A stretch of DNA of 64,000 bases. Source: Procambarus clarkii. Taxonomy: Eukaryota; Arthropoda; Malacostraca; Decapoda; Cambaridae. Positions 7,576 through 54,100 of this stretch are shown here, piece after piece. The notes beneath the pieces were generated by a model. It saw nothing but the letters and a program-made list of their open reading frames with translations, did not search any database and had not been told where the DNA came from. Position numbers and translations under genes: made by a program. Position 1 is the stretch's first letter. The number at the start of each line of letters is the position of its first letter. The stretch covers positions 36,200,084 to 36,264,083 of the forward strand of contig NC_091199.1 in the NCBI RefSeq assembly GCF_040958095.1. Direction: 5' to 3'.

Positions 7576-8110
7576 GGTGTACCAATGGTGACGGTGGTGT
7601 GTGATGGAGACTGTGGTGTGTGGTGGTGACGGTGGTGTGTGATGGAGAAGGTGGTGTGTGGTGTTGACGGCGGTGTATAATGGTGACGGTGGTGTGTGGT
7701 GGTGACGGTGGTGTGTGGTGGTGACGGTGGTGTGTGATGGTGAAGGTGGGGTGTGGTGATGACGATAGTGGTGAATGTGATGTGTTTAGTGGTGACGGTA
7801 ATGTGTGGTGGTGACGGTGGTGTGTGGTGGTGACGGTGGTGTGTGGTGGTGACGTTGGTGTATAATAGTGACGGTGGTGTGTGGTGGTGACGGTGGTGTG
7901 TGGTGGTGACGGTGGTGTGTTGTGGTGACGGTGGTGTGTGGTGGTGACGGTGGTGTGTGGTGGTGACGGTGGTGTGTGGTGGTGACGGTGGTGTGTGGTG
8001 GTGACGGTGGTGTACAATGGTGACAGTTGTGTGTGGTGGTGACAGTGGTGTGTGGTGGAGACGGTGGTGTATAATGGTGACGGTGGCGTGTGGTGGTGAC
8101 GGTGGTGTGT

Positions 8111-11100
8111 TGGAGTGACGGTGGTGTGTGATGGTGAAGGGGGGATGTGGTGATGACAATGGTGGTGACTGGTGATTGGTGGTGACGGTGGTGTGTGGTG
8201 GTGACGGTGGTGTACCAATGGTGACGGTGGTGTGTGGTGGAGACGGTGGTGTGTGGTGGTGACTGTGGTGTGTGATGGTGAAGGTGGTGTGTGGTGGTGA
8301 CGGTGGTGTGTGGTGGTGACGATAGTGTGTGGTGGTGACGGTGGTGTGAGATGGTGAAGGTGGGGTGTGGTGATGACGATGGTGGTGACTGTGGTGTTTG
8401 GTGGTGATCGTAATGTGTGGTGGTGACGGTGGTGTGTGGTGGTGACGGTGGTGTGTGGTGGTGACGTTGGTGTATAATGGTGACGGTGGTGTGTGGTGGT
8501 GACGGTGGTGTATGGTGGTGACGGTGGTGTGTGGTGGTAACGGTGGTGTGTGGCGGTGACGGTGGTGTATAATGGTGACGGTGGTGTGTGGTGGTGAATG
8601 TGGTGTGTGGTGGTGACGTTGGTGTGTGGTAGTGATGGTGGTGTGTGATGGTGAAGGTGGAGTGTGGTGATCACTGTGGTGGTGACTGTGGTGTTTGGTG
8701 GTGACAATAATGTGTGCTGGTGACGGTGGTGTGTGGTGGTGAAGGGGGGGTGTGGTGATGACGATGGTGGTGACTGTGGTCTTTGGTGGTGACGGTAATG
8801 TGTGGTGGTGACTGTGGTGTGTGGTGGTGACGGTGGTGTGTGATGGTGAAGGTGGAGTGTGGTGATGACGATGGTGGTGACTGTGGTGTTTGGTGGTGAC
8901 GGTAATGTGTGGTGGTGACGGTGGTGTGTGGTGGTGACGGTGGTGTGTGATGGTGAAGGTGGGGTGTGGTGAAGACGATGGTGGTGACTGTGGTGTTTGG
9001 TAGTGACGGTAATGTGTGGTGGTGGCGGTGGTGTGTGAAGGTGAAGGGGGGATGTGGTGATGATGATGGTGGTGACTGTGGTGTTTCGTAGTGACGGTGA
9101 TGTGTGGTGGTGACCGTGGACTGTGTTGGTGACGGTGGTGTGTGGTGGTGACGGTTGTTTATAATGGTGACGGTGGTGTGTGGTGGTGAAGGTAGTGTGT
9201 GGTGGTGACGATTGTGTGTGGTAGTAATGGTGGTGTGTGATGGTGAAGTTGGGGTGTGGTGATGACGGTGGTGTGTGGTGCTGATGGTGGTGTGTGGTGG
9301 TGACGGTGGTGTACCAATGGTGACAGTGGTGTGTGATGGAGACGGTGGTGTGTGGTGGTGACGGTGGTGTGTGATGGTGACGGTGGTGTGTGATGGTGAA
9401 GGTGGGGTGTGGTGATGACGATGGTGGTGAATGTGGTGTTTAGTGGTGACGGTAATGTGTGGTGGTGACGGTGGTGTGTGGTGGTGACGGTGGTGTGTGG
9501 TGGTGACGTTGGTGTATAATGGTGACGGTGGTGTGTGGTGGTGACGGTGGTGTGTGGTGGTGACGGTGGTGTGTTGTGGTGACGGTGGTGTGTGGTGGTG
9601 ACGGTGGTGTGTGGTGCTGACGGTGGTGTGTGGTGGTGACGGTGGTGTGTTGTGGTGACGGTGGTGTACAATGGTGACAGTGGTGTGTGGTGGTGACGGT
9701 GGTGTGTGGTGGAGACGGTGGTGTATAATGGTGACGGTGGTGTGTGCTGGAGACGGTGGTGTGTGGTGGTGACGGTGGTGTGTGATGGTGAAGGTTGTGT
9801 GTGGTGGTGACGGTGGTGTTTAATGGTGACGGTGGTGTGTGGTGGTGACGGTGGTGTGTGGTGGTGACGGTGGTGTGTGAAGGTGAAGGTGGGGTGTGGT
9901 GTGTGGTGGTGACGGTGGTGTGTGGTGGTGACGGTGGTGTGTGGTGGTGACGGTGTTGTGTGGCGGTGACGGTGGTGTGTGGTGGTGACGGTGGTGTATA
10001 ATGGTGACGGTGGTGTGTGGTGGTGAATGTGGTGTGTGGTGGTGACGGTGGTGTGTTGTAGTGACGGTGGTGTGTGATGGTGAGAGTGGTGTGTGGTAGT
10101 GATGGTGGTGTGTGATGGTGAAGGTGGGGTGTGGTGATCACGGTGGTATGTGGTGGTGACGGTGGTGTGTGGTGGTGACGGTGGTGTGTTGTAGTGACGG
10201 TGGTGTGTGGTGGTGACGGTGGTGTGTGAAGGTGAAGGTGGGGTGTGGTGTGTGGTGGTGACGGTGGTGTGTGGTGGTGACGGTGTTGTGTGGCGGTGAC
10301 GGTGGTGTGTGGTGGTGACGGTGGTGTATAATGGTGACGGTGGTGTGTGGTGGTGAATGTGGTGTGTGGTGGTGACGGTGGTGTGTTGTAGTGACGGTGG
10401 TGTGTGATGGTGAGAGTGGTGTGTGGTAGTGATGGTGGTGTGTGATGGTGAAGGTGGGGTGTGGTGATCACGGTGGTATGTGGTGGTGACGGTGGTGTGT
10501 GGTGGTGACGGTGGTGTGTTGTAGTGACGGTGGTGTGTGGTGGTGACGGTGGTGTGTGGTGCTCACGGTAGTGTGTGGTGGTGACGGTGGTGTACAATAG
10601 TGACAGTGGTGTGTGGTGGTGACGGTGGTGTGTGGTGGAGACGGTGGTGTGTGATGGTGAAGGTGGGGTGTGGTGATGACGATGGTGGTGACTGTGGTGT
10701 TTGGTGGTGACGGTGGTGTGTGGTGGTGACCGTGGTGTGTTGGAGTGACGGTGGTGTGTGATGGTGAAGGGGGGATGTGGTGATGACAATGGTGGTGACT
10801 GGTGATTGGTGGTGACGGTGGTGTGTGGTGGTGACGGTGGTGTACCAATGGTGACGGTGGTGTGTGGTGGAGACGGTGGTGTGTGGTGGTGACTGTGGTG
10901 TGTGATGGTGAAGGTGGTGTGTGGTGGTGACGGTGGTGTGTGGTGGTGACGATAGTGTGTGGTGGTGACGGTGGTGTGAGATGGTGAAGGTGGGGTGTGG
11001 TGATGACGATGGTGGTGACTGTGGTGTTTGGTGGTGATCGTAATGTGTGGTGGTGACGGTGGTGTGTGGTGGTGACGGTGGTGTGTGGTGGTGACGTTGG

Positions 11101-13370
11101 TGTATAATGGTGACGGTGGTGTGTGGTGGTGACGGTGGTGTATGGTGGTGACGGTGGTGTGTGGTGGTAACGGTGGTGTGTGGCGGTGACGGTGGTGTAT
11201 AATGGTGACGGTGGTGTGTGGTGGTGAATGTGGTGTGTGGTGGTGACGTTGGTGTGTGGTAGTGATGGTGGTGTGTGATGGTGAAGGTGGAGTGTGGTGA
11301 TCACTGTGGTGGTGACTGTGGTGTTTGGTGGTGACAATAATGTGTGCTGGTGACGGTGGTGTGTGGTGGTGAAGGGGGGGTGTGGTGATGACGATGGTGG
11401 TGACTGTGGTCTTTGGTGGTGACGGTAATGTGTGGTGGTGACTGTGGTGTGTGGTGGTGACGGTGGTGTGTGATGGTGAAGGTGGAGTGTGGTGATGACG
11501 ATGGTGGTGACTGTGGTGTTTGGTGGTGACGGTAATGTGTGGTGGTGACGGTGGTGTGTGGTGGTGACGGTGGTGTGTGATGGTGAAGGTGGGGTGTGGT
11601 GAAGACGATGGTGGTGACTGTGGTGTTTGGTAGTGACGGTAATGTGTGGTGGTGGCGGTGGTGTGTGAAGGTGAAGGGGGGATGTGGTGATGATGATGGT
11701 GGTGACTGTGGTGTTTCGTAGTGACGGTGATGTGTGGTGGTGACCGTGGACTGTGTTGGTGACGGTGGTGTGTGGTGGTGACGGTTGTTTATAATGGTGA
11801 CGGTGGTGTGTGGTGGTGAAGGTAGTGTGTGGTGGTGACGATTGTGTGTGGTAGTAATGGTGGTGTGTGATGGTGAAGTTGGGGTGTGGTGATGACGGTG
11901 GTGTGTGGTGCTGATGGTGGTGTGTGGTGGTGACGGTGGTGTACCAATGGTGACAGTGGTGTGTGATGGAGACGGTGGTGTGTGGTGGTGACGGTGGTGT
12001 GTGATGGTGACGGTGGTGTGTGATGGTGAAGGTGGGGTGTGGTGATGACGATGGTGGTGAATGTGGTGTTTAGTGGTGACGGTAATGTGTGGTGGTGACG
12101 GTGGTGTGTGGTGGTGACGGTGGTGTGTGGTGGTGACGTTGGTGTATAATGGTGACGGTGGTGTGTGGTGGTGACGGTGGTGTGTGGTGGTGACGGTGGT
12201 GTGTTGTGGTGACGGTGGTGTGTGGTGGTGACGGTGGTGTGTGGTGCTGACGGTGGTGTGTGGTGGTGACGGTGGTGTGTTGTGGTGACGGTGGTGTACA
12301 ATGGTGACAGTGGTGTGTGGTGGTGACGGTGGTGTGTGGTGGAGACGGTGGTGTATAATGGTGACGGTGGTGTGTGCTGGAGACGGTGGTGTGTGGTGGT
12401 GACGGTGGTGTGTGATGGTGAAGGTTGTGTGTGGTGGTGACGGTGGTGTTTAATGGTGACGGTGGTGTGTGGTGGTGACGGTGGTGTGTGGTGGTGACGG
12501 TGGTGTGTGAAGGTGAAGGTGGGGTGTGGTGTGTGGTGGTGACGGTGGTGTGTGGTGGTGACGGTGGTGTGTGGTGGTGACGGTGTTGTGTGGCGGTGAC
12601 GGTGGTGTGTGGTGGTGACGGTGGTGTATAATGGTGACGGTGGTGTGTGGTGGTGAATGTGGTGTGTGGTGGTGACGGTGGTGTGTTGTAGTGACGGTGG
12701 TGTGTGATGGTGAGAGTGGTGTGTGGTAGTGATGGTGGTGTGTGATGGTGAAGGTGGGGTGTGGTGATCACGGTGGTATGTGGTGGTGACGGTGGTGTGT
12801 GGTGGTGACGGTGGTGTGTTGTAGTGACGGTGGTGTGTGGTGGTGACGGTGGTGTGTGAAGGTGAAGGTGGGGTGTGGTGTGTGGTGGTGACGGTGGTGT
12901 GTGGTGGTGACGGTGTTGTGTGGCGGTGACGGTGGTGTGTGGTGGTGACGGTGGTGTATAATGGTGACGGTGGTGTGTGGTGGTGAATGTGGTGTGTGGT
13001 GGTGACGGTGGTGTGTTGTAGTGACGGTGGTGTGTGATGGTGAGAGTGGTGTGTGGTAGTGATGGTGGTGTGTGATGGTGAAGGTGGGGTGTGGTGATCA
13101 CGGTGGTATGTGGTGGTGACGGTGGTGTGTGGTGGTGACGGTGGTGTGTTGTAGTGACGGTGGTGTGTGGTGGTGACGGTGGTGTGTGGTGCTCACGGTA
13201 GTGTGTGGTGGTGACGGTGGTGTACAATAGTGACAGTGGTGTGTGGTGGTGACGGTGGTGTGTGGTGGAGACGGTGGTGTGTGATGGTGAAGGTGGGGTG
13301 TGGTGATGACGATGGTGGTGACTGTGGTGTTTGGTGGTGACGGTGGTGTGTGGTGGTGACCGTGGTGTGT
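8111..13370. repeat. Direct tandem duplication of a 2630-bp satellite A segment
   Basis: Segment 8111-10740 is followed immediately by a second copy at 10741-13370. Both begin with tggagtgacggtggtg and keep the same order of variants, including a repeated smaller block at offset about 349 bp (for example 9878 and 10227). The junction at 10740/10741 joins the end of the segment to its own beginning, as unequal crossing-over would produce. Assembly duplication is an alternative. Confidence 0.85.
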
Positions 13371-16300
13371 AGTGCTGACGGTGGTGTGTGGTGGTGACGG
13401 TGGTGTACCAATGGTGACATTGGTGTGTGATGGAGACTGTGGTGTGTGGTGGTGACGGTGGTGTGTGATGGTGAAGGTGGTGTGTGGTGTTGACGGCGGT
13501 GTATAATGGTGACGGTGGTGTGTGGTGGTGACGGTGGTGTGTGGTGGTGACGGTGGTGTGTGATGGTGAAGGTGGGGTGTGGTGATGACGATAGTGGTGA
13601 ATGTGATGTGTTTAGTGGTGACGGTAATGTGTGGTGGTGACGGTGGTGTGTGGTGGTGACGGTGGTGTGTGGTGGTGACGTTGGTGTATAATAGTGACGG
13701 TGGTGTGTGGTGGTGACGGTGGTGTGTGGTGGTGACGGTGGTGTGTTGTGGTGACGGTGGTGTGTGGTGGTGACGGTGGTGTGTGGTGGTGACGGTGGTG
13801 TGTGGTGGTGACGGTGGTGTACAATGGTGACAGTTGTGTGTGGTGGTGACAGTGGTGTGTGGTGGAGACGGTGGTGTATAATGGTGACGGTGGTGTGTGG
13901 TGGTGACGGTGGTGTGTTGGGGTGACGGTGGTGTGTGATGGTGAAGGGGGGATGTGGTGATGACAATGGTGGTGACTGTGGTGATTGGTGGTGACGGTGG
14001 TGTGTGGTGGTGACGGTGGTGTACCAATGGTGACAGTGGTGTGTGGTGGAGAGGGTGGTGTGTGGTGGTGACGGTGGTGTGTGATTGTGAAGGTGGTGTG
14101 TGGTGGTGACGGTGGTGTATAATGGTGACGGTGGTGTGTGGTGGTGACGGTGGTGTGTGGTGGTGACGGTGGTGTGTTGTAGTGACGGTGGTGTGTGGTG
14201 GTGACGGTGGTGTGTGGTGCTCACGGTGGTGTACAATGGTGACAGTTGTGTGTGGTGGTGACAGTGGTGTGTGGTGGAGACGGTGGTGTGTGATGGTGAC
14301 GGTGGTGTGTGATGGTGAAGGTGGGGTGTGGTGATGACGATGGTGGTGAATGTGGTGTTTAGTGGTGACGGTAATGTGTGGTGGTGACGGTGGTGTGTGG
14401 TGGTGACGGTGGTGTGTGGTGGTGACGTTGGTGTATAATGGTGACGGTGGTGTGTGGTGGTGACGGTGGTGTGTGGTGGTGACGGTGGTGTGTTGTGGTG
14501 ACGGTGGTGTGTGGTGGTGACGGTGGTGTGTGGTGCTGACGGTGGTGTGTGGTGGTGACGGTGGTGTGTTGTGGTGACGGTGGTGTACAATGGTGACAGT
14601 GGTGTGTGGTGGTGACGGTGGTGTGTGGTGGAGACGGTGGTGTATAATGGTGACGGTGGTGTGTGCTGGAGACGGTGGTGTGTGGTGGTGACGGTGGTGT
14701 GTGATGGTGAAGGTTGTGTGTGGTGGTGACGGTGGTGTTTAATGGTGACGGTGGTGTGTGGTGGTGACGGTGGTGTGTGGTGGTGACGGTGGTGTGTGAA
14801 GGTGAAGGTGGGGTGTGGTGTGTGGTGGTGACGGTGGTGTGTGGTGGTGACGGTGGTGTGTGGTGGTGACGGTGTTGTGTGGCGGTGACGGTGGTGTGTG
14901 GTGGTGACGGTGGTGTATAATGGTGACGGTGGTGTGTGGTGGTGAATGTGGTGTGTGGTGGTGACGGTGGTGTGTTGTAGTGACGGTGGTGTGTGATGGT
15001 GAGAGTGGTGTGTGGTAGTGATGGTGGTGTGTGATGGTGAAGGTGGGGTTTGGTGATCACGGTGGTATGTGGTGGTGACGGTGGTGTGTGGTGGTGACGG
15101 TGGTGTGTTGTAGTGACGGTGGTGTGTGGTGGTGACGGTGGTGTGTGGTGCTCACGGTAGTGTGTGGTGGTGACGGTGGTGTACAATAGTGACAGTGGTG
15201 TGTGGTGGTGACGGTGGTGTGTGGTGGAGACGGTGGTGTGTGATGGTGAAGGTGGGGTGTGGTGATGACGATGGTGGTGACTGTGGTGTTTGGTGGTGAC
15301 GGTGGTGTGTGGTGGTGACCGTGGTGTGTAGGGCTGACGGTGGTGTGTGGTGGTGACGGTGGTGTACCAATGGTGACATTGGTGTGTGATGGAGACTGTG
15401 GTGTGTGGTGGTGACGGTGGTGTGTGATGGTGAAGGTGGTGTGTGGTGTTGACGGCGGTGTATAATGGTGACGGTGGTGTGTGGTGGTGACGGTGGTGTG
15501 TGGTGGTGACGGTGGTGTGTGATGGTGAAGGTGGGGTGTGGTGATGACGATAGTGGTGAATGTGATGTGTTTAGTGGTGACGGTAATGTGTGGTGGTGAC
15601 GGTGGTGTGTGGTGGTGACGGTGGTGTGTGGTGGTGACGTTGGTGTATAATAGTGACGGTGGTGTGTGGTGGTGACGGTGGTGTGTGGTGGTGACGGTGG
15701 TGTGTTGTGGTGACGGTGGTGTGTGGTGGTGACGGTGGTGTGTGGTGGTGACGGTGGTGTGTGGTGGTGACGGTGGTGTACAATGGTGACAGTTGTGTGT
15801 GGTGGTGACAGTGGTGTGTGGTGGAGACGGTGGTGTATAATGGTGACGGTGGTGTGTGGTGGTGACGGTGGTGTGTTGGGGTGACGGTGGTGTGTGATGG
15901 TGAAGGGGGGATGTGGTGATGACAATGGTGGTGACTGTGGTGATTGGTGGTGACGGTGGTGTGTGGTGGTGACGGTGGTGTACCAATGGTGACAGTGGTG
16001 TGTGGTGGAGAGGGTGGTGTGTGGTGGTGACGGTGGTGTGTGATTGTGAAGGTGGTGTGTGGTGGTGACGGTGGTGTATAATGGTGACGGTGGTGTGTGG
16101 TGGTGACGGTGGTGTGTGGTGGTGACGGTGGTGTGTTGTAGTGACGGTGGTGTGTGGTGGTGACGGTGGTGTGTGGTGCTCACGGTGGTGTACAATGGTG
16201 ACAGTTGTGTGTGGTGGTGACAGTGGTGTGTGGTGGAGACGGTGGTGTATAATGGTGACGGTGGTGTGTGGTGGTGACGGTGGTGTGTTGGGGTGACGGT

Positions 16301-17852
16301 GGTGTGTGATGGTGAAGGGGGGATGTGGTGATGACAATGGTGGTGACTGTGGTGATTGGTGGTGACAATGGTGTGTGGTGGTGACGGTGGTGTACCAATG
16401 GTGACGGTGGTGTGTGGTGGAGACGGTGGTGTGTGGTGGTGACGGTGGTGTGTGATGGTGAAGGTGGTGTGTGGTGGTGACGGTGGTGTGTGGTGGTGAC
16501 GATAGTGTGTGGTGGTGACGGTGGTGTGAGATGGTGAAGGTGGGGTGTGGTGATGACGATGGTGGTGACTGTGGTGTTTGGTGGTGATCGTAATGTGTGG
16601 TGGTGACGGTGGTGTGTGGTGGTGACGGTGGTGTGTGGTGGTGACGTTGGTGTATAATGGTGACGGTGGTGTGTGGTGGTGACGGTGGTGTATGGTGGTG
16701 ACGGTGGTGTGTGGTGGTAACGGTGGTGTGTGGCGGTGACGGTGGTGTGTGGTGGTGACGGTGGTGTATAATGGTGACGGTGGTGTGTGGTGGTGAATGT
16801 GGTGTGTGGTGGTGACGTTGGTGTGAGGTAGTGATGGTGGTGTGTGATGGTGAAGGTGGAGTGTGGTGATCACTGTGGTGGTGACTGTGGTGTTTGGTGG
16901 TGACGGTAATGTGTGCTGGTGACGGTGGTGTGTGGTGGTGAAGGGGGGGTGTGGTGATGACGATGGTGGTGACTGTGGTGTTTGGTGGTAACGGTAATGT
17001 GTGGTGGTGACGGTGGTGTGTGGTGGTGAAGGTGGGGTGTGGTGATGACGATGGTGGTGACTGTGGTGTTTGGTGGTGACGGTAATGTGTGGTGGTGACG
17101 CTGGTGGGTGGTGGTGGTGGTGGTGTGTGATGGTGAAGGTGGGGTGTGGTGATGACGATAGTGGAGAATGTGATGTGTTTAGTGGTGACGGTAATGTGTG
17201 GTGGTGACGGTGGTGTGTGGTGGTGACGGTGGTGTGTGGTGGTGACGTTGGTGTATAATAGTGACGGTGGTGTGTGGTGGTGACGGTGGTGTGTGGTGGT
17301 GACGGTGGTGTGTTGTGGTGACGGTGGTGTGTGGTGGTGACGGTGGTGTGTGGTGGTGACGGTGGTGTGTGGTGGTGACGGTGGTGTACAATGGTGACAG
17401 TTGTGTGTGGTGGTGACAGTGGTGTGTGGTGGAGACGGTGGTGTATAATGGTGACGGTGGTGTGTGGTGGTGACGGTGGTGTGTTGGGGTGACGGTGGTG
17501 TGTGATGGTGAAGGGGGGATGTGGTGATGACAATGGTGGTGACTGTGGTGATTGGTGGTGACGGTGGTGTGTGGTGGTGACGGTGGTGTGTGATGGTGAA
17601 GGTGGGGTGTGGTGATGACGATAGTGGTGAATGTGATGTGTTTAGTGGTGACGGTAATGTGTGGTGGTGACGGTGGTGTGTGGTGGTGACGGTGGTGTGT
17701 GGTGGTGACGTTGGTGTATAATAGTGACGGTGGTGTGTGGTGGTTACGGTGGTGTGTGGTGGTGACGGTGGTGTGTTGTGGTGACGGTGGTGTGTGGTGG
17801 TGACGGTGGTGTGTGGTGGTGACGGTGGTGTGTGGTGGTGTGTGGTGGTGAC

Positions 17853-18352
17853 NNNNNNNNNNNNNNNNNNNNNNNNNNNNNNNNNNNNNNNNNNNNNNNN
17901 NNNNNNNNNNNNNNNNNNNNNNNNNNNNNNNNNNNNNNNNNNNNNNNNNNNNNNNNNNNNNNNNNNNNNNNNNNNNNNNNNNNNNNNNNNNNNNNNNNNN
18001 NNNNNNNNNNNNNNNNNNNNNNNNNNNNNNNNNNNNNNNNNNNNNNNNNNNNNNNNNNNNNNNNNNNNNNNNNNNNNNNNNNNNNNNNNNNNNNNNNNNN
18101 NNNNNNNNNNNNNNNNNNNNNNNNNNNNNNNNNNNNNNNNNNNNNNNNNNNNNNNNNNNNNNNNNNNNNNNNNNNNNNNNNNNNNNNNNNNNNNNNNNNN
18201 NNNNNNNNNNNNNNNNNNNNNNNNNNNNNNNNNNNNNNNNNNNNNNNNNNNNNNNNNNNNNNNNNNNNNNNNNNNNNNNNNNNNNNNNNNNNNNNNNNNN
18301 NNNNNNNNNNNNNNNNNNNNNNNNNNNNNNNNNNNNNNNNNNNNNNNNNNNN
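17853..18352. other. Assembly gap (500 Ns)
   Basis: Exactly 500 N characters separate satellite A from a LINE ORF1. The round number suggests a placeholder of unknown true size. Frames spanning it are meaningless. Confidence 0.99.
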
Positions 18353-25758: not shown

Positions 25759-27199
25759 TCAAATGTAGCTTAATTTGTTAGTCGACTGGAGATATTTAGC
25801 CAGTGTTATGCCTATTTTATATTTTTCCTGTAACGAGAGGTCACCTCCTCCTAATATATGCTCGATGGTAAAGGGTATTTTAAGTGCAGTAAATACTTGT
25901 TTGAAGTTTAATCTGGCACTATGATGTCAGCAAAAGTGAAGGAGATAGTGTTCGATTGTCTGAGGCCCCTGACAGTGGATGCAGAGTTCGTTGATGTTTG
26001 ATCTGTACTTAGAGCTGAGTGCTGCCAGTTTGGTGTGTCCAAGCCTTAATCTGGTCATCGTTACATCAGTTTCTCTGCTTTTTATAACTGACATGTTTCC
26101 AAGTTTCCGTTTTCTTTTTAATGGACCCATAGTACAAAGCTGAGCATGACGTTTTCCATTTCATTAAAAAATCTTTGGTGATAGTATCTTTGAAGGCTAC
26201 TTTTCGTGCAATATGAGGAAATGGATGACGGGTAATGTGAGGTGTGTTGTGCATCGATTTGGCCAGTTGATCTACAAGTTTATTATGAAGTATACCACAA
26301 TGCCCTGGGATCCAATGGATAGAGATGTCATAACCGTTCAATCAATGTTCATGAAGAAGTTAAAGTGATGGGTAAACAAACTCTTTGCATGTCGTTGAAG
26401 AGTACATAATTGCTTGAATCGCACTCTTGGAGTCACTACAGATTGTATCTCGCCCAACTGGTAATGATGTGATTATTTGGAGAGCTTGGTATAAGGCATA
26501 TAATTCAGCAGTGAAAATAGATAGTTGGTTTAGTAACTGCCATCCTTGCTGGAGATGGTATTCCGGTATCCATCCAGCGCTAGTGACCGAAGGTGCGTTG
26601 TTCATGAGGATGCGAGATCCATCTGCATAAATCGCTGTGGTATTTGGCTACCAATTTTCCAATCTTGAGACAAAGACTGAGGCTATGGCTGAGTTTGGTG
26701 CAGACTTTGGAATGTTGTCATCGAGTTGTATTGATATATTAGGAGTTGTATAAAGTCAAGGTGGAATTGGGGGGCACAGTAAGTTGAGTTTCAGAGTTTT
26801 GGAGTAAAGTGAGGTTTATACTGAGGTTATCTGTAGCCCGTGTGAGGATCGGTTGTGATTGGTGGGGAAATGGGGTTATGTGGGTTAATTGTTGGGTTAA
26901 TTTTTTATCTGTATGGGTGTGTCTGGTGAGCAGTGGTACAGAGTGACAGATAGTTGGCACACATTATGTCCCGTCTGGTGGCAAAGCTTGTGAGGCCTTT
27001 TACCACGTGAAGTCCAAAGAAAGGAGTGGAAAGCATTGCACCACATGTAAGTCGCATAGCATTGTTTTGTATGACCTCAAGGATCTGTGGCTGCTCCGTA
27101 GGAGCAGCCACAGAGCCTTGCATCGGCTGCTCCTACGGAGCAGCCGATGCAAATGCCTACCAACAATAGTCTAGTTGGCTGCGAATGTAGGCTGTATAT
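25759..27199 (-). pseudogene. LINE ORF2 C-terminal half: RNase H and Cys-rich end, several frameshifts
   Basis: In order on the minus strand: an SQLDYC segment at the LTR boundary, QILEVIQNNAMRLTCGAML (about 27100-27030), then the RNase H domain. Its catalytic set looks present: Asp in YADGS (near 26630), Glu in AELYAL (near 26500), Asp in SDSKSAIQAI (near 26430) and Asp in VDQLAK (near 26270). A TRLRLGHTKL segment and CIHCQGPQTIEHYLLHFC follow near 26060-25930, the Cys/His pattern common at the end of such ORFs. A final ILGGGDLSLQEKY stretch runs to a TGA at 25759-25761. The parts lie in different frames (breaks near 26960, 26350 and 25930), so the ORF is dead. Confidence 0.75.
27084..27152. 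repeat. Double palindrome inside the LINE ORF (probable template-switch mutation)
   Basis: Two perfect hairpins lie 3 bp apart. One is 27084-27114, with 14-bp arms around gta. The other is 27118-27152, with 16-bp arms around tac. Their central 21 bp are reverse complements of each other. In the minus-strand LINE frame the 69 bp replace what appears to be a 33-bp ancestral stretch, a 36-bp gain that keeps frame but creates a TAG stop. Confidence 0.85.
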
Positions 27200-27883
27200 T
27201 GTGACGGTAACGCGTTGGTGTTCGGCTGTTAAGGCTAGGGGTATGGCCTCGTCACATAGTTATAAAAAAAAATAGAAAACTGGAACTTCGTCTGTGGTAA
27301 GGTAAGGAGAAGACACACAAAACACAAGTAAAACTTTAACAATGAAATTTTAATTACGTTAAATAAATCAAAACATGAAAATATGGACAGACAAATATGT
27401 ATAATAAAATCAATGAATCAAAATAATAAGAATACTTAAATGACACAATGAAAAGTTACGTTAAGGCAAAATAATAAGAAGTGCAACACAAAGGTAAGTG
27501 GGAGGTGCTGGAATATTGGCTTAAAGCCACCACCTCTCTCAGTACACGCTAACGTCTAGCTGGGAGGAGTGCTGGCTACGAAAGCACTGAACATTCTGAG
27601 GACTGATGTTGGGGCGACCCCAGACATCAGGTAGTATAGGGGGGGGGCGAGGCAGGTGCAGCCAGACCGGCGACCAATCAGCGGAGCCGTAGCGATCAAC
27701 GGGTAGTTTGGTGGTTGGAGTTCGAACAGGTGGCTGGCTGCATACGTTTCGCTCACCCTGGCAAGCCTTGCTGGTGTTGTTGTCGTTGTTGGACATTTCT
27801 TCCATAGTCTTTTTATATAATTGTGAAGACGTAATTATGGAGGGAAGAGCAGGCTCAATCTCTTGAAGGAGATTATCGTCACA
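27200..27883 (-). repeat. 3' long terminal repeat (684 bp)
   Basis: Starts TGTGACG and ends CGTCACA on the + strand, giving 7-bp inverted termini. By eye it is identical to the copy at 32494-33177, including a run of nine G. Identity of the LTRs implies recent insertion or gene conversion. The internal ORF runs about 340 nt into this LTR before its TGA stop. Confidence 0.93.
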
Positions 27884-30800
27884 ACTCTCCCCCGAAGCCT
27901 GCGGTTCTGGAAGAAGTACGTCGTTATGTGGTGGAGTATTAGATGGAGTTGCTTCTACTTCATAAACTCTGGAGAGATCATGGGCTAAGATGTTGTCAGA
28001 CTCTTGGTATAGCGTGTCTCCAGGTTGAATTTCTGCAGTTAGCAAGCCCATAGTAGAAGACGTTGAGATGAGAAGTGGGCGTGCTGCAGGAGGTGTAGGG
28101 TGGTGTGGTCCGTATTGATGGTGGACCGAGCACTTTTCAGGTGTGGAGTGAAGTGCTGAAGCTTCAGGATGAGGAAGAGTAGCTCCTTGCCAATTGTTCC
28201 GTCGTTCCTTGTAGCAGTAGTCGCTGACAGGTGTATTCTTCTCGCCTCGTTGCTGCATCACGACACCACCATCGTCGGTACCATTGGCGTCGACATGGAG
28301 GATGTAGGGCTTATCTGACGAGGTGAGAGTGGAATTAGAAGAGGGCATAGGAGCACGAGTATTATCCTGAAAGCATTTGGGAAGATCATTAAGGATTTTG
28401 GAATTAGAAAGCGCCGACTCCTTGTCAGTGCTTTCGGGAGAAGAAGCCGGGATGGTCTCACTGTGGATGTAGGGTTCTGTGAAGGTAGAACAATTAATCA
28501 AGACAGTGGGAGGAGTACCATTATATTGCTTCAGGAGGTTGACGTGGCACAGCTGGGTCTTCCGCCGCCTATCTGGAGTCTCTATGACGTATGTGTTGTT
28601 GCTTCTGCACTCTTTGACGCAGTAGGGTCCTGAAAATCTGTTTTGTAAAGGTGAACCTGGGATAGGGAAATAGGCAAGGACGAAGTCTCCCGGCTTGAAT
28701 TTTCTTACTTTGCTGGTCTGGTCGTAATGAGTCTTCATTCTCACCTGGGCTTTCAATAGATTATCATGGGCAAAGCGGTGGACTCTCTCTAGAATGTGTT
28801 GAAGGTTTTGAAGAAACTGGGGCACATTCTGATGCTCACTGAAGGTGGCATCTCTGAGAGAGTCTTTGAAAGCCTTAAGGGGAGTACGGCACTTACGGCC
28901 GTAGAGCATCTCATAAGGAGATACTCCTAGGGACTCATTGGGGAGACTTCTGAAAATACACATTATTAGGTCAATCTGCTTATCCCAATCCTTCGAGGTT
29001 TCACTACAAAACTTTTTCAAGAGTGCTTTGATGGTCTGATGACTACGTTCAAGAGAACCCTGTGAAGCAGGATGATAGGGGCTGGACAATACCTGTTTGA
29101 TGTTGAACTCCTCCAGTGTCCTTTTGAAGAGATCACTGGTGAAGTTGGTGCCACAGTCACTTTGAATCTCCCTGGGAAATCCGTATTGAGTGAAGATCTT
29201 CAATAGATGTTTGATAACCGTAGCAGCCGTGATATTCTTCACTGGAACTGCTATGGGAAATCTGGTGGTAGGACACAGGATGGTTAGGATGTAGGCGTTA
29301 CCTGAACTGGTCCGAGGTAAAGGACCAACACAGTCTATTATGAGTCTGTGGAAAGGTTCCGCAGGCACCTGTATGGGAATCAGTGGTGCTCTGGGAATGG
29401 AGACGTTCGGTTTGCCTGCCATCTGACATGTATGACACTGTTTTACGTACTGTTTGACGTTATTTACCATACCTGGCCAGTAGTAGTCTTGGCGAATCCC
29501 ATGGTAAGTCTTGTTGAAGCCGTAGTGGGAGAATGCTCCGTGGGCCAGGTGTAGAATAGTGGGCCGCAGGCTGGTGGGAATCACAAGTTGTTCGGTGTTG
29601 GCCCAATCGTCCTCCTCCTTCAGTTTACTGGGTCTATATCTGCGGTAGAGCAAGTCGTTCTCTAGGAAGAACCCAGGAATACTGTCGGGTTGAGTCTCAG
29701 CCTGGAAAAACAATGGTGTTAAAGTAAGATCTTCCCTCTGCAACTTACGGAACTCCAACTTGGTCAGATGCGGGGGTAGTTTCTGAGGGTCTTGAGGGAC
29801 AGCGGTAGCAGTAGAGTCAGCTGGCTGTGGACGTGCGGCTTGTGCACGGGTGGTCACGAGAACCGGAGGAGAAACTTCATCACTCTCTTGAACCTCTGCT
29901 GGAACATACTCGAGAATAGGATTTATTGGCACAGAGTTACACACCTGGGGTTTGTCCATGACGATCAGGTTGGTCGGTTGCAGGTCTTCTGCCAAGTCGT
30001 TGCCTAGGAGAAGTTGCACTCCAGGCATGGGAAAAGGCTTTTCCCTGACGGCGACTTGGACTTCCCCGTTCACGTAGGGACAATCCAGGTGGACTCTGGC
30101 GAGAGGGTATGGAGTAGTAGCAGTGAGGTCAGTGATGAAGACTGTTTCCCCGGTGTAGACTATGTTGGGCACAGCCGACTTCAAGATGATTGATTGTAGA
30201 GCCGCTGTGTCCCTCAAGATCTTCAATTTGAAACGTCCCTCCGGATTTGAACCGTTGGCAGAGACAGTTCCAGTATACAGGTGGTTACTGAAAAGAGAAA
30301 GATCATTAACATCAACACCAACATTCATCACAGGCTTACCGGACTTAGGAGGAGTTGGTTTGGGTCGTTGTTGGTCAGTGGTTCCCTTGTATTGAGACTT
30401 ACCACACTTGTCTATGGTATGTCCATAGAGTCTACAATACTTGCAGTACAGTTGTGAACCAGCTTGATCGGGGCTCACCTTCTCGTAACTGTACCACGAC
30501 TTCTTACTGGAGGATGGTTCAGGTGTCAGCCGGTGGATGAGGCTGTAAGTGTCAGCCGACTTAGCACACTTCAGGTAGTCGGTTTCTTCTTTATCTGCTA
30601 AGTAGAGGCGGACAGGAGGCGGCACACGTCTCAAGAATTCTTCAACAAGCATCAGGTTGACGAGTTCTGTAAAAGTAGAGACATGTGCTGCTTCCAGCCA
30701 TTTCATGAAATACCTCCGTTTCGTGTTAGCAAACTCGAGGAAGGTAGTGGTACTTGCCTTCAGGTGGTCACGGAATTTCCTTCTATAACTTTCAGTAGAG

Positions 30801-31600
30801 AGGAGGTAGGCGTCCAACACTGCTTGTTTCAGAGTGTAGTAGTCATTCTCAGACGCCAAAGTACTGAGTGTGACTGCAGCTCTACCTGTAAGATGGACTC
30901 TGAGAAGTGTGGCCCATTGGTCGACAGGCCAACTGAGTTGATTAGCAAGGGTTTCAAAGGTGGTGAAAAACACATCAACTTCTGCTTCTACAAAGGATGG
31001 CATTAACTTACTTGCATGTGATATATTAAAACTGACGGGAAGATTGGCAGTAGCTTGCTGGCGTTGAGTGAAGTGTGAAGTTTCCAAGGCGATTTCACGT
31101 TGACGACACTCTAGAGCCAGAGTCGCTTGTTGCTTGTCATGTTCGCGTTGTATTTCCAACTCGCGTTGTTTGGTTTCAAGCTGTAAGCGTTCCCGCTCCT
31201 GGAGTGTTTCAAGCTGTACTCGTTCACGTTCACGGAGTAATGCGACCTCGCGTTCGTGTTCTTCTCTCCTCAAAGCAGCTTCGCGTTCTTGTTCTTCCCT
31301 TCGTATGGTAGCTGCTTCTCTTTGCTGCTCACGTTCAATCTTAGCCAGCTCTAGTTTAAGTTTCATCGTAGCCAAGTCAGTTTTCTCTGCAATATAGTAA
31401 GTTTCATGAGTTTCAGAGTCTATCTTACCTTGCTCTAAATAGTAATCCAGCAACAGGTTGTGTAGGTCATTTTTGTTGGCTTGGTAGGGAACTTCTAGTT
31501 GATACTCATGTGCAAGAGTTTGTAGTTCAGTCCTCTTGGCACGACTTAAAGTCCCTATTTCACCTGCTGGATTTGCACGGAAAGTTTGGAGACGAAACAT
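27539..31600 (-). CDS. Gag-protease-integrase polyprotein with RNase H remnant; RT absent
   Basis: One open frame of about 1353 codons runs from ATG at 31600 (MFRLQTF) to TGA at 27539-27541 in the 3' LTR. The domains, with approximate residues, are as follows. An N-terminal gag helix region (1-65) is followed by a charged Arg/Glu coiled coil (about 70-165) and a capsid-like region (about 185-370). Then come a CX2CX4HX4C zinc knuckle, CKYCRLYGHTIDKC (about 383-396), and a protease-like LRDTAAL (about 457) with LLLGNDLA (about 535). The integrase HHCC finger is at about 680-722. Its DDE core is intact-looking: Asp in IIDCVGP (about 752), Asp in SDCGTNF (about 813) and Glu in SLERSHQ (about 849). 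A chromo-like GPYCVKECRSNN segment follows. RNase H begins with YILHVDANGT (about 1096) and then loses frame. No RT motif (xDD) is present. The frame is otherwise uninterrupted. Confidence 0.88.
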   Translation of the reverse strand: MFRLQTFRANPAGEIGTLSRAKRTELQTLAHEYQLEVPYQANKNDLHNLLLDYYLEQGKIDSETHETYYIAEKTDLATMKLKLELAKIEREQQREAATIRREEQEREAALRREEHEREVALLRERERVQLETLQERERLQLETKQRELEIQREHDKQQATLALECRQREIALETSHFTQRQQATANLPVSFNISHASKLMPSFVEAEVDVFFTTFETLANQLSWPVDQWATLLRVHLTGRAAVTLSTLASENDYYTLKQAVLDAYLLSTESYRRKFRDHLKASTTTFLEFANTKRRYFMKWLEAAHVSTFTELVNLMLVEEFLRRVPPPVRLYLADKEETDYLKCAKSADTYSLIHRLTPEPSSSKKSWYSYEKVSPDQAGSQLYCKYCRLYGHTIDKCGKSQYKGTTDQQRPKPTPPKSGKPVMNVGVDVNDLSLFSNHLYTGTVSANGSNPEGRFKLKILRDTAALQSIILKSAVPNIVYTGETVFITDLTATTPYPLARVHLDCPYVNGEVQVAVREKPFPMPGVQLLLGNDLAEDLQPTNLIVMDKPQVCNSVPINPILEYVPAEVQESDEVSPPVLVTTRAQAARPQPADSTATAVPQDPQKLPPHLTKLEFRKLQREDLTLTPLFFQAETQPDSIPGFFLENDLLYRRYRPSKLKEEDDWANTEQLVIPTSLRPTILHLAHGAFSHYGFNKTYHGIRQDYYWPGMVNNVKQYVKQCHTCQMAGKPNVSIPRAPLIPIQVPAEPFHRLIIDCVGPLPRTSSGNAYILTILCPTTRFPIAVPVKNITAATVIKHLLKIFTQYGFPREIQSDCGTNFTSDLFKRTLEEFNIKQVLSSPYHPASQGSLERSHQTIKALLKKFCSETSKDWDKQIDLIMCIFRSLPNESLGVSPYEMLYGRKCRTPLKAFKDSLRDATFSEHQNVPQFLQNLQHILERVHRFAHDNLLKAQVRMKTHYDQTSKVRKFKPGDFVLAYFPIPGSPLQNRFSGPYCVKECRSNNTYVIETPDRRRKTQLCHVNLLKQYNGTPPTVLINCSTFTEPYIHSETIPASSPESTDKESALSNSKILNDLPKCFQDNTRAPMPSSNSTLTSSDKPYILHVDANGTDDGGVVMQQRGEKNTPVSDYCYKERRNNWQGATLPHPEASALHSTPEKCSVHHQYGPHHPTPPAARPLLISTSSTMGLLTAEIQPGDTLYQESDNILAHDLSRVYEVEATPSNTPPHNDVLLPEPQASGESCDDNLLQEIEPALPSIITSSQLYKKTMEEMSNNDNNTSKACQGERNVCSQPPVRTPTTKLPVDRYGSADWSPVWLHLPRPPPILPDVWGRPNISPQNVQCFRSQHSSQLDVSVY
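27884..27894 (-). other. Candidate polypurine tract
   Basis: On the minus strand GGGGGAGAG plus a terminal T abuts the 3' LTR. This is the position and composition of a plus-strand primer site in LTR elements. Confidence 0.6.
27985..28325 (-). other. Frameshifted RNase H remnant inside the polyprotein frame
   Basis: The main frame enters a gypsy-type RNase H domain (HVDANGT, about 28300) but after about 28215 loses resemblance. The similarity continues in a neighbouring frame from about 28195 to 28010, including a TDH motif near 28115, with one stop in that frame. It returns to the main frame at the LAHDLSRV segment (about 27985). Compensating indels therefore left the long frame open while scrambling the middle of the domain, which is not expected to be active. 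Confidence 0.7.
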
Positions 31601-32493
31601 GGTGAAATTAGCAAATAAAGGTACACGAATGTTCAATAATGAAATGTCAGAAACAGGACAACGTGGCAACTGGTACCTATCCTGTGTGATCTTTAACAAT
31701 TAACGTTAAGTGAAAGATATTAAATGATTAAATTAAATCAAGGGCGCAGGAAATCTTGTACCCGGTACTCATGTAAGAGAATAAGGGCAAGAAAATCCTA
31801 CTAACAAATGAAACAAAGTTTCGAAAACAAATGAAACAGTTAAATGCTTCAAAAGTAAAATTGGTAGTCCAAGGATGTAGGCATACCTTGCCAAGTCTCT
31901 ATAGGACATAAAGCAAGTTTTTCCCACTGAATTTAATATGATACTTACAGAATTAGCGAACTTTTGTGCTCTGAAAAAATAAGCTAATTCCCTACCGTTG
32001 TATGTATCATCATCTCTGACTGACGTGTAGGGGTGCGAGGTGTCAACTGGTGACGAGAACTGCTGCTGAGGTCCCAATTCAGCAACTAAAGTTCGAGCTA
32101 GAGGAACTATGGCCCTCTTTGTCCTCCTACAGTCAGATTACAGAAGATTGGGTACTCTTGACCCAGGGCAGACCACAGTACCAGGGTACCAATATGATGA
32201 TCTGTCAGAATGAGAAATATTCAAGGGACATAGATGGTAAATACGAGTAATAACAAGGAGGGAGAGATGACCAATTAAGAGTATGACTGCGGCCTACAGT
32301 CACCACGTAATCCAAAGTTGTCTCACCTTCACTATATGTTACTCTCGTAATGCACAATACACCGCACCTTATAAAAAATGAAATTGAATGAAAAATAGTA
32401 AAGCTACGTTAACAAAGTTAAATACGCTTACCATAAATTACCACTTGGCACCAGTACCTGAGTGAAGCTCCTAGGACAGGCCCCCATATAACT
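31601..32493 (-). other. 5' leader of the LTR element
   Basis: This stretch of 893 nt lies between the 5' LTR and the gag ATG. It contains only short shadow frames, and I recognise no domain. The first in-frame codons upstream of the chosen ATG (to 31699) would need a TTG start, which is implausible in a eukaryote. Confidence 0.6.
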
Positions 32494-33177
32494 TGTGACG
32501 GTAACGCGTTGGTGTTCGGCTGTTAAGGCTAGGGGTATGGCCTCGTCACATAGTTATAAAAAAAAATAGAAAACTGGAACTTCGTCTGTGGTAAGGTAAG
32601 GAGAAGACACACAAAACACAAGTAAAACTTTAACAATGAAATTTTAATTACGTTAAATAAATCAAAACATGAAAATATGGACAGACAAATATGTATAATA
32701 AAATCAATGAATCAAAATAATAAGAATACTTAAATGACACAATGAAAAGTTACGTTAAGGCAAAATAATAAGAAGTGCAACACAAAGGTAAGTGGGAGGT
32801 GCTGGAATATTGGCTTAAAGCCACCACCTCTCTCAGTACACGCTAACGTCTAGCTGGGAGGAGTGCTGGCTACGAAAGCACTGAACATTCTGAGGACTGA
32901 TGTTGGGGCGACCCCAGACATCAGGTAGTATAGGGGGGGGGCGAGGCAGGTGCAGCCAGACCGGCGACCAATCAGCGGAGCCGTAGCGATCAACGGGTAG
33001 TTTGGTGGTTGGAGTTCGAACAGGTGGCTGGCTGCATACGTTTCGCTCACCCTGGCAAGCCTTGCTGGTGTTGTTGTCGTTGTTGGACATTTCTTCCATA
33101 GTCTTTTTATATAATTGTGAAGACGTAATTATGGAGGGAAGAGCAGGCTCAATCTCTTGAAGGAGATTATCGTCACA
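32494..33177 (-). repeat. 5' long terminal repeat (684 bp)
   Basis: Same length and, by eye, the same sequence as 27200-27883, with TGTGACG/CGTCACA termini on the + strand. It is followed by the ATAT target-site copy at 33178-33181. It would carry the element promoter; I could not place a TATA box with confidence. Confidence 0.93.
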
Positions 33178-33310
33178 ATATAAACAGGGCAAAATTTTAT
33201 GGTGTGCTCCCCAGGTAGTGTGGCCAGGGTCAGGGGCTGACTGAGGGGGAGAGCCTCCTGGCGGATCAAGATTTTTGGTGTGGACTCGTCCATGTGGGGG
33301 AGTACCCCCA
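33178..33310 (-). pseudogene. Upstream fragment of the interrupted I-like LINE
   Basis: The minus-strand sequence next to the LTR reads HTTWGAHHKILPCLY. This is the segment expected just before SQLDYC on the other side of the LTR element, so the LTR element landed inside this ORF. Similarity fades beyond about 33240-33310, giving an uncertain 5' end. No reverse transcriptase motif was found further right. Confidence 0.6.
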
Positions 33311-51177: not shown

Positions 51178-54100
51178 TCACGATAAGGCACCAGTACACA
51201 TCATAAGGCACCAGTACACACCATAAGGCACCAGTACACACCATAAGACACCAGTACACACCATAAGGCACCAGTACATACCATAAGGCACCAGCACACA
51301 CCATAAGGCACCAGTACATACCATAAGGCACCAGTACACACCATAAGGCACCAGTACACACCATAAGGCACCAGTACATACCATAAGGCACCAGTACACA
51401 CCATAAGGCACCAGTACACACCATACGACACCAGTACCAACCATAAGGCACCAGTACATACCATAAGGCACTTGAACAAACCATAAGGCACCAGTACACA
51501 CCAAAAAGCACCAGTACACACTATAAGGCCCCAGTACACACCATAAGGCACCAGTACACACCATAAGGCACCAGTACACACCATAAGGCACCAGTATATA
51601 CCATAAGGCACCAGTACACACCATAAAGCACCAGTACACACCATATGACACCAGTACACACCATAAGGCACCAGTACGCACCATAAGGCGCCAGAACACA
51701 CCATAAGGCACCAGTACACACCATAAGGCCCCAGTACACACCATAAGGCACCAGTACACACCATAAGGCACCGGTACACACCATAAGGTACGGGTACACA
51801 CTATAAGGAACCAGTACACACCATAATGCACCAGTACACACCATAATGCACCAGTACACACAATAAGGTACCAGTACACACCATAATGCACCAGTACACA
51901 CCATAAGGCACCAGTACACACCATAATGCACCAGTACACACCATAATGCACCAGTACACATCATATGGCACCAGTACACACTATAATGCACAAGTACACA
52001 CAATAAGGTACCAGTACACACCATAAGGCACCAGTACACTCCATACGGCACCAGTATGCACCATAAGGCACCAGAACACACCATAAGGCACCAGTACACA
52101 CAATAAGGTACGAGTACACACCATAAGGCACCAGTACACACCATAATGCACCAGTACACATCATAAGGCACCAGTACACATCATAATGCAACAGTACACA
52201 CAATAAGGTACCAGTACACACTATAAGGCACCAGTACACGCCATAAGGCACCAGTGCACACCATAAGGCACCAGAACACACACCATAAGGCACCAGAACA
52301 AACCATAAGGCACCAGTACACACAATAAGGTACGAATACACACCATAAGGCACCAGTACACACCATAATGCAAGAGTACACATCATATGGCACCAGTACA
52401 CACCATAAGGCACCAGTACACACCATAATGCACCAGTACACACCGTAAGGCACCAGTACACAATCAGGCACCATTACACACAATAATGCACCAGTACACA
52501 CCATAAGGCACCAGTACACACCTTAAGGCAACAGTACACAGTATAAGACACCAGTACACACCATAAGGCACCAGTATACACCATAAGGTACCAGTACACA
52601 CCATAAGGCACCAGTACACACCTTAAGGCAACAGTACACAGTATAAGGCACCAGTACACACCATAAGGAACCAGTACATACCATAAGGCACCAGTACACA
52701 CCAAAAGGTACCAGTACACACTATAAGGCACCAGTACACAGTATAAGGCACCAGTACACACAATAAGGCACCAGTACACACCATACGGCACCAGTACACA
52801 CTATAAGGCACCAGTACACACCATAAGGCACCAGTACACAGTATAAGGCACAAGTACACACTATAAGGCACCAGTATACACCATAAGGTACCAGTACACA
52901 CCATAAGGTACCAGTACACACCATAAGGCATACGTACACACCTTAAGGCACCAGTACACACCATAAGGCACCAGCACACACCATAAGGCAGCAGTTCACA
53001 CCATAAGGCACCAGTACACATGATAGAGCACCAGTACACACCATAATGCACCAGTACACACCATAAGGCACCAGTACACACCATAAGGCACCAGTACACA
53101 TCATAAGGCACCAGTACACACCATAAGGCTCCAGTACAAACCATAAAGTACCAGTACACAGCATAAGGCACCAGCACCAGTACACACCATGAGGCACCAG
53201 TACACACCATAAAGTACCAGTATACACAATAAGGCACCAGCACCAGTACACACTATAAGGCACCAGTACACACTATAAGGCACCAGTACACACTATAAGA
53301 CTCCAGTACACACTATAAGGCACCAGTACACAATATAAGGCACAAGTACACACTATAAGGCACCAGTACACATCATAAGGCATCAGTACACACTATAAGG
53401 CACCAGTACACACTATAAGGCATCAGTACATAGTATAAGGCACCAGTACACACTATTTGGCACAAGAACACACTTTAAAGCACCAGTACACACCATAAGG
53501 CACCAGAACACACTATAAGGCACCAGTAAACACTATAAGGCACCAGTGCGCACCATAAGGCACCAGTACACACCATAAGGCACCAGTACACACCATAAGG
53601 CACCAGTACACACCATAAGGCACCAGTACACACTATAAGGCACCAGTACACACGATAAGGCACCAGTACACACCATAAGGGAACAGTACACACCATAAGG
53701 CACCAGTACATACCATTAGGCACCAGTACACACCATAAGGCACCAGTACACACCATACGGCACCAGTACACACCATAAGGCACCAGTACACACCATAAGG
53801 CACCCGTACACACCAAAAGGTACCAGCACACACTATAAGGTACCAGTACATACCCTAAGGCACCAGTACACACTATAAGGCACCAGTACACACCATAAGA
53901 CACCAGTACAAACCGTAAGGCACCAGTACATACCATAAGGCACTAGAACACACCATAAGGCATCAGTACACACCATAAGGCACCAGTACACACCATAAGG
54001 CCCCAGTACACACCATAAGGAACCAGTACACACCATAAGGCACCAGTATATACCATAAGGCACCAGTACACAACATAAGGCACCAGTACACACTATAAGA

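What the first reader, a model, noticed from the sequence alone, without database searches (positions are those of the whole stretch)
27200..33177. Recently inserted gypsy-type element with integrase upstream of RNase H and no reverse transcriptase
Seen: gag, protease-like, HHCC and DDE integrase, chromo-like segment, then an RNase H remnant in one frame. No RT motif lies anywhere between LTRs that look identical. Known: integrase-before-RT order occurs in Gmr1-like Ty3/gypsy elements. Inferred: an RT deletion between the integrase C-terminus and RNase H (near 28330-28420) produced a copy that still transposed, or converted its LTRs, using RT from a relative. The retained long open frame hints that Gag-integrase may still be useful.
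Basis: partly seen in the sequence, partly recalled or inferred. Interest (0 to 1): 0.8.

Follow-up and report, generated by a model that had tools for sequence, protein, structure and literature searches.

The report
RT-less jumping gene, thousands of copies
This is a retrotransposon that has lost its own copying enzyme but keeps its shell and integration proteins, and its signature is found at over two thousand places in the genome beside a near-identical complete relative that probably does the copying for it.

Summary
Window 27199-33178 (minus strand) is a 5,980-bp LTR element with identical 686-bp LTRs, TATA on both sides, and one ORF for SCAN-type Gag, a protease-like region and integrase, then a decayed RNase H. 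It has no RT. Complete relatives in the same genome have the order gag-PR-IN-RT-RH and are 98-100% identical to it over most of the LTR/gag/IN part, so IN-before-RT is real and RT was deleted at 28348/28349. The same junction occurs at 2,228 places, against 1,083 for an RT active-site word (1,717 for an RT-start word). RT-less and RT-bearing copies share gag and IN haplotypes. Association with RT presence falls from odds ratio 45 at 235 bp to 2.0 at 1.6 kb and 1.8 at 2.7 kb (neither significant at 5%), as expected if the forms recombine. The RNase H remnant is about 20% diverged inside an otherwise near-identical element, so the RT-less form is probably older than its present copies. Best explanation: a Gmr1-like non-autonomous morph mobilised by its partner's RT while keeping its own Gag-IN. 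Whether that Gag-IN is under selection in its own right is open. Most sampled copies lie in (TA)n; the window copy lies at a plain TATA.

The parts
33179..33182 (.). TATA at the 5' side of the element (target site duplication)
32493..33178 (-). 5' LTR, 686 bp, TTGTGAC...GTCACAA
   Evidence: identical to the 3' LTR
32463..32492 (-). start of internal region (GTTATATGGGGGCC...), where the primer binding site should lie; same first 14 bases in RT-bearing copies L009 and L012
   Evidence: tRNA not identified
28523..31600 (-). Gag-PR-IN coding part, from ATG (MFRLQ) to the end of the integrase (HVNLLKQY); the open frame continues to 27542
30545..30793 (-). SCAN-like capsid segment of Gag (Pfam PF02023, E 2.9e-7, 30.6 bits, cut-off 27)
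30404..30445 (-). zinc knuckle CKYCRLYGHTIDKC
29852..30361 (-). protease-like segment (DTAA at 30211; no family or structure hit)
29414..29581 (-). integrase zinc-binding H2C2 domain
   Evidence: E 7.7e-20
29069..29359 (-). integrase core (rve), D-58-D-35-E
   Evidence: E 3.6e-13
   Evidence: E 1.8e-7
28348..28349 (-). RT deletion junction (about 0.94 kb present in L009 and L012 is missing)
27885..28348 (-). RNase H remnant, four deletions (6, 17, 3, 1 bp) and 93 of 464 bases different from L009; only 3 of the 93 lie in the last part before the PPT
27885..27893 (-). polypurine tract GGGGGAGAG
27199..27884 (-). 3' LTR, 686 bp
27195..27198 (.). TATA at the 3' side of the element (target site duplication)

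Best explanation
A non-autonomous morph of a Gmr1-like Ty3/gypsy retrotransposon (order gag-PR-IN-RT-RH in one frame). One old event removed the RT; the RNase H then decayed. The morph is still transcribed, packaged and integrated because complete, RT-bearing copies with the same LTR ends, internal start and PPT supply RT and RNase H in trans. In mixed particles RT switches between the two RNAs, so LTR, gag and integrase keep being exchanged with the complete morph and stay near-identical, while the RNase H remnant next to the deletion drifts. Shown: structure, shared junction, high number of places, an intact partner, shared haplotypes, fall of linkage with distance, TA-rich targets. Inferred: RT in trans, co-packaging and template switching as the route of exchange, and use of the morph's own Gag and integrase.
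For: Junction at 2,228 places against 1,083 for an RT active-site word, 1,717 for an RT-start word and 3,989 for an integrase word, control 0 each. Complete copies L009 and L012 have open frames of 1,649 and 1,617 codons; L009 has RVT_1 and RNase H. Window copy and L009/L012 are 98-100% identical in most 200-bp windows of LTR, gag and IN but 71-89% in the RNase H remnant. Only 5 fixed differences between 39 RT-less and 4 RT-bearing copies from the gag start to the junction, all within about 50 bp of it; four gametes at 766 of 1,830 site pairs in RT-less copies. Linkage to RT presence: OR 45 (p 1e-7) at 235 bp, 2.0 (p 0.053) at 1,572 bp, 1.8 (p 0.21) at 2,738 bp; 61 RT-less and 68 RT-bearing places on C1-C7. 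L013 is a direct mosaic, RT-bearing type then RT-less type inside RNase H, between LTRs without a difference. The 9 paired-LTR copies read that have this junction show 0-1 LTR substitutions.
Against: No expression or transposition data. Ectopic gene conversion in the chromosomes could also exchange haplotypes. Near the junction the morphs are strongly structured (haplotype A: 24 RT-less, 1 RT-bearing), so exchange is not free. In a few windows (variable gag stretch, stretch before the junction) identity of the window copy to L009/L012 falls to 82-96%. Only 4 RT-bearing copies could be read over gag-IN. For most copies the target lies in a TA repeat, where a duplication cannot be told from the repeat.
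Confidence: 0.85

Rival explanations
1. The RT-less copies were multiplied at the DNA level (segmental or tandem duplication), not by retrotransposition.
For: Some copies lie in tandem, e.g. places 5,223 bp apart on C11, and L035 and L048 where the LTR is followed by another internal start. Of the 12 copies with both flanks read, several share flank sequence beyond the TA run: L010, L012, L014 and L015 with each other, L010 with L011, L009 with L013, short pieces with L019.
Against: In those 12 copies only L012 and L014 match on both sides, and one is RT-bearing and the other RT-less; L014 and L015 or L010 and L011 match on one side only or crosswise, which points to a shared repeat that holds TA tracts as target rather than to copied segments. 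The window copy's flanks match none of the others. Places are spread over many contigs and LTR pairs differ at 0-1 sites. Tandem cases were not counted genome-wide.
Confidence: 0.05
2. Plain parasite: the Gag-PR-IN frame of the RT-less morph is not needed by it; it is open only because copies are young and keep receiving gag-IN sequence from complete copies.
For: Haplotypes are shared with complete copies; 27 of 42 integrase variants found in two or more RT-less copies also occur in the 4 RT-bearing copies read.
Against: The other 15 are 4 nonsynonymous and 11 synonymous, still few nonsynonymous, but with only 4 RT-bearing copies they cannot be called private. Haplotype A, tied to the RT-less morph, differs from B by 8 bases and one residue in L015 (9 bases and two residues in the window copy).
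Confidence: 0.45
3. Cooperative division of labour: the RT-less morph is kept because it supplies extra Gag, protease and integrase to an element that otherwise makes Gag and RT in a fixed 1:1 polyprotein.
For: Complete copies L009 and L012 encode everything in one frame; RT-less junction places outnumber RT-bearing ones, 2,228 to 1,083 by the active-site word or 1,717 by the RT-start word; integrase part uninterrupted in 35 of 39 sampled RT-less copies; variants in 3 or more copies N 8, S 28 against 24.4 and 10.5 expected; the frame stays open through the decayed RNase H to the same tail.
Against: The sample was picked for similarity, and import of sequence from complete copies gives the same signal. 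No protein data.
Confidence: 0.2
4. The RNase H segment came from another, diverged element family by recombination, so the 20% divergence does not measure age since RT loss.
For: Sharp borders of the diverged island. N 58, S 34 against a neutral 64.4 and 25.5, a slight excess of silent changes.
Against: Changes are spread over codon positions (31, 23, 39) with four deletions, more like a pseudogene than a working RNase H. No donor family was seen, but the searches list only the closest copies.
Confidence: 0.25

Closest known systems
Gmr1-like Ty3/gypsy elements, including crustacean ones (GyRex4, Gychoro2, GyMaja1, GyLiva4; GyRex5 as a possible part) and Saugg1 of sea bream (PMC3587641, passages seen)
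   Same: Integrase upstream of RT; SCAN-type Gag, reported for Gmr elements (PMC4131045, PMC3406341, passages seen).
   Different: The window copy and the other places with its junction lack RT; the passages seen describe no RT-less morph.
RLG_Cereba / RLG_Quinta pair of wheat (PMC11302176, abstract and passages seen)
   Same: Autonomous and non-autonomous partners with the same LTR ends and PBS; the partner keeps Gag.
   Different: Quinta keeps Gag but has no integrase or RT; here Gag and integrase are kept, RT and RNase H are lost, and the pair is near-identical elsewhere.
RLC_Angela, RLG_Sabrina/WHAM and BARE2 of Triticeae (PMC9744471, passages seen)
   Same: Non-autonomous elements thought to be mobilised in trans; LTR exchange by conversion or template switching suggested there.
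   Different: Angela partners have a degenerate coding part, Sabrina/WHAM lack RT and INT, BARE2 has a broken Gag; here one module (RT-RH) was lost and the rest kept.

Membership tests
Gmr1-like Ty3/gypsy | integrase upstream of RT | tested here: met
   RT-bearing copies L009 and L012 in one frame, L020 over the part read; RVT_1 and RNase H follow the integrase in L009
Gmr1-like Ty3/gypsy | SCAN-related capsid | tested here: met
   Pfam SCAN E 2.9e-7, above cut-off; the link to Gmr1 is from passages of PMC4131045 and PMC3406341
Gmr1-like Ty3/gypsy | RT and IN group with named Gmr1 elements in a tree | not testable with these tools
   no collection with named Gmr1 proteins was on hand; RT-RH of L009 matches Ty3 (PDB 4ol8, E 9e-88), which shows the superfamily only
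non-autonomous LTR retrotransposon | LTRs, PPT and target duplication but an essential enzyme missing | tested here: met
   for the window copy
non-autonomous LTR retrotransposon | multiple copies sharing the defect | tested here: met
   2,228 places with the same junction, up to 3 mismatches
non-autonomous LTR retrotransposon | an autonomous partner with the same termini | tested here: met
   L009, L012: LTR 98-99% identical, same internal start; PPT GGGGGAGAG in L009, one G shorter in L012
non-autonomous LTR retrotransposon | mobilisation in trans shown directly | not testable with these tools
   needs RNA, particle or new-insertion data
chromovirus (considered) | chromodomain after the integrase | tested here: not met
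   Pfam lists p58_C and a sub-threshold SH3_Tf2-1 only

The most novel reading that the evidence does not exclude
A two-morph retroelement population: RT-plus and RT-minus genomes co-package and recombine as one gene pool, and the RT-minus morph is kept by selection as a supplier of Gag, protease and integrase, correcting the fixed Gag:RT ratio of a single-frame element.
Probability: 0.18. Interest if true: 0.8.

Novelty: new variant of a known kind. Interest (0 to 1): 0.56.

Why it matters
The non-autonomous LTR elements in the papers seen have lost most coding sequence or keep only Gag. Here an animal element lost only its RT-RH module, kept Gag-IN, and its junction is found at more places than RT words of its complete partner. 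The fall of linkage with distance from the missing module gives a population-genetic reading of recombination between two retroelement genomes in one host, and makes parasite-versus-partner questions testable from sequence counts.

Tried and rejected
Chromodomain: not found. Assembly chimera: rejected by 2,228 shared junctions. Independent repeated deletion of RT: rejected because the copies read share both the junction and the same decayed RNase H. L013 as a second large RT-less class: rejected, its junction occurs at 2 places. Free exchange between morphs: rejected as too strong, haplotype A is 24 to 1. Protease check by structure prediction: not run, the machine was busy. Paper searches for an RT-less LTR element that keeps Gag and integrase (listings and abstract starts, 20 of 205 papers and 20 of 22) showed none in what was listed; that is no proof of absence, and the library is partial. 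The host species was not identified.

Dropped rows: for variant counts L001, L002, L003, L007 and L033 were left out as repeats of other rows and L013 as a recombinant. Haplotype linkage used only exact matches on contigs C1-C7 because the listings are cut at 100 places. In the flank count only near-full-length LTR matches were used, L001-L008 and L033 were left out as repeats, and three downstream flanks that begin GTTATAT (two in L025, one in L052) were set aside by the script as internal although they are not; with them the count is 36 of 48. The window copy is not in that count; its target is TATA, not a TA repeat. L001-L058 were chosen by similarity to the window copy, so openness and diversity figures lean towards young, similar copies.
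Full report
What is there. The element runs from 27199 to 33178 on the minus strand: 686-bp LTRs without a difference, TATA on both sides, PPT GGGGGAGAG before the 3' LTR. One frame (1,386 codons stop to stop) holds Gag with a SCAN hit and a zinc knuckle, a protease-like stretch with DTAA, the integrase (H2C2, rve, p58_C, D-58-D-35-E), and then a decayed RNase H. RT is absent: RT protein of a complete relative finds only 21 linker residues in the window. Comparison of the frame with the PDB gives matches in the integrase part, best Ty3.

The genome. The window lies in a 4.03-Gb assembly of 2,308 contigs. The LTR search had 3,107 first-look candidates and listed 41 matches; 12 LTR pairs can be recognised among them, 10 (window included) spaced 5.26-5.39 kb and 2 spaced 6.24-6.29 kb. 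The two long ones, L009 and L012, are complete: gag-PR-IN-RT-RH in one open frame of 1,649 and 1,617 codons. L020 is RT-bearing too, and the second copy in L025 by its layout (its RT was not translated). L009 scores RVT_1 3.1e-30 and RT_RNaseH 2.9e-33, and its RT-RH matches Ty3 RT/RNase H, 9e-88. Nine of the ten short pairs share the window's deletion; the tenth, L013, has its own.

Numbers (words of 36 bases, up to 3 mismatches, reversed control 0): RT-less junction 2,228; RT-start site of the complete form 1,717; RT active-site word 1,083; integrase word 3,989. Of 97 exact RT-start places on C1-C7, 63 have the exact active-site word about 564 bases on, so some RT-start places are broken or diverged in RT. 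Word counts are not counts of intact elements.

Age and decay. LTR pairs of the 12 full copies read differ by 0-1 substitutions. The RNase H remnant differs from L009 at 93 of 464 aligned bases with deletions of 6, 17, 3 and 1 bp, while most other 200-bp windows of the window copy are 98-100% identical to L009 and L012. Exceptions are a variable coiled-coil part of gag (82-92%, and 95.5% next to it in L012), the stretch before the junction (90-95%), and two L012 windows at 96.5-97.5%. So RT loss and RNase H decay look older than the present copies, unless the remnant came from another family, while the rest has been kept alike.

Exchange. Between 39 RT-less and 4 RT-bearing copies only 5 fixed differences lie between the gag start and the junction, all within about 50 bp of it. 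Blocks of variants are shared across morphs. On C1-C7, haplotype A/B 235 bp upstream: RT-less 24/21, RT-bearing 1/39, OR 45, p 1e-7; haplotype M 1,572 bp upstream: 32 of 61 against 24 of 68, OR 2.0, p 0.053; haplotype G2 2,738 bp upstream: 17 of 61 against 12 of 68, OR 1.8, p 0.21 (with all 97 RT-start places as denominator G2 gives OR 2.7, p 0.02). L013 changes from RT-bearing type to RT-less type inside RNase H; it also has three RT-less-type sites just upstream of its RT-bearing stretch. This is what recombination before integration predicts; chromosomal gene conversion is not excluded.

Is the Gag-IN of the RT-less form useful? For: the integrase part is uninterrupted in 35 of 39 copies; variants in three or more copies are N 8, S 28 against neutral 24.4 and 10.5 (ratio 0.12), singletons N 23, S 18, stop 3 (0.46); gag/PR in 9 copies gives 0.24 for variants in three or more. 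The frame also stays open through the decayed RNase H into the same tail as in L009: with the observed deletions, 4-7% of random-substitution trials stay open, suggestive only. Against: sampled copies are similar by choice, and import from complete copies gives the same picture. I leave this open.

Target sites. TATATA lies within 8 bases of the LTR at 13 of 16 upstream and 36 of 45 downstream genomic flanks (36 of 48 if three flanks set aside by the script are added), against 29 of 26,392 positions in the surveyed part of the window. Both morphs show it (L009, L012, L020 and L021 are of RT-bearing type). The window copy itself lies at TATA without a TA repeat. Several copies also share repeat sequence beyond the TA run, so the target is often a TA tract inside some repeat. 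This fits one shared integration machinery. Insertion into (AT/TA)n by endogenous nimaviruses with a DDE transposase is described in sesarmid crabs (PMC10871703, abstract and passages seen).

Known context. Gmr1-like elements have IN before RT and occur in decapods (PMC3587641, passages seen). SCAN in Gmr elements: PMC4131045 and PMC3406341, passages seen. [quoted passage not shown] I therefore class this as a new variant of a known kind.

Noticed in passing
2-17840: 19-bp minisatellite, about 953 units (GTGACGGTGGTGTGTGGTG), followed by a run of N at about 17853-18352.
   Followed up: no
51179-64000: 20-bp minisatellite, about 640 units (CACCATAAGGCACCAGTACA), strand-skewed.
   Followed up: no
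26066-26647 (minus): Open frames that look by eye like the RNase H of a non-LTR retrotransposon; no search was run.
   Followed up: no
L022, L023, L026: LTRs without an internal part on either side, each flanked on both sides by TA repeats, i.e. likely solo LTRs.
   Followed up: partly
G000 C11:28899495, 28904718, 28909941 and C4:5546501, 5550253, 5554004: Evenly spaced places (5,223 bp and about 3,751 bp apart) of the RT-less junction word and of the RT active-site word, suggesting tandem arrays by unequal exchange.
   Followed up: no
L025: An RT-less and an RT-bearing-type copy with their 3' LTRs facing each other, 83 bp apart.
   Followed up: no
window about 31100-31390 (gag coiled-coil): Hypervariable repeat-like stretch of gag in which modules differ between copies, with net length changes in multiples of three in the copies checked.
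   Followed up: partly
L009 element position 888-1410: 174-codon open frame in the leader before gag, present at this length in 10 of 12 full copies, longer in L014, broken in the window copy; function unknown.
   Followed up: no
flanks of L010, L011, L012, L014, L015: 200-bp flanks of different copies match each other beyond the TA run (about 80-97%), often crosswise, as if the TA tracts belong to a dispersed or tandem repeat used as a target.
   Followed up: partly
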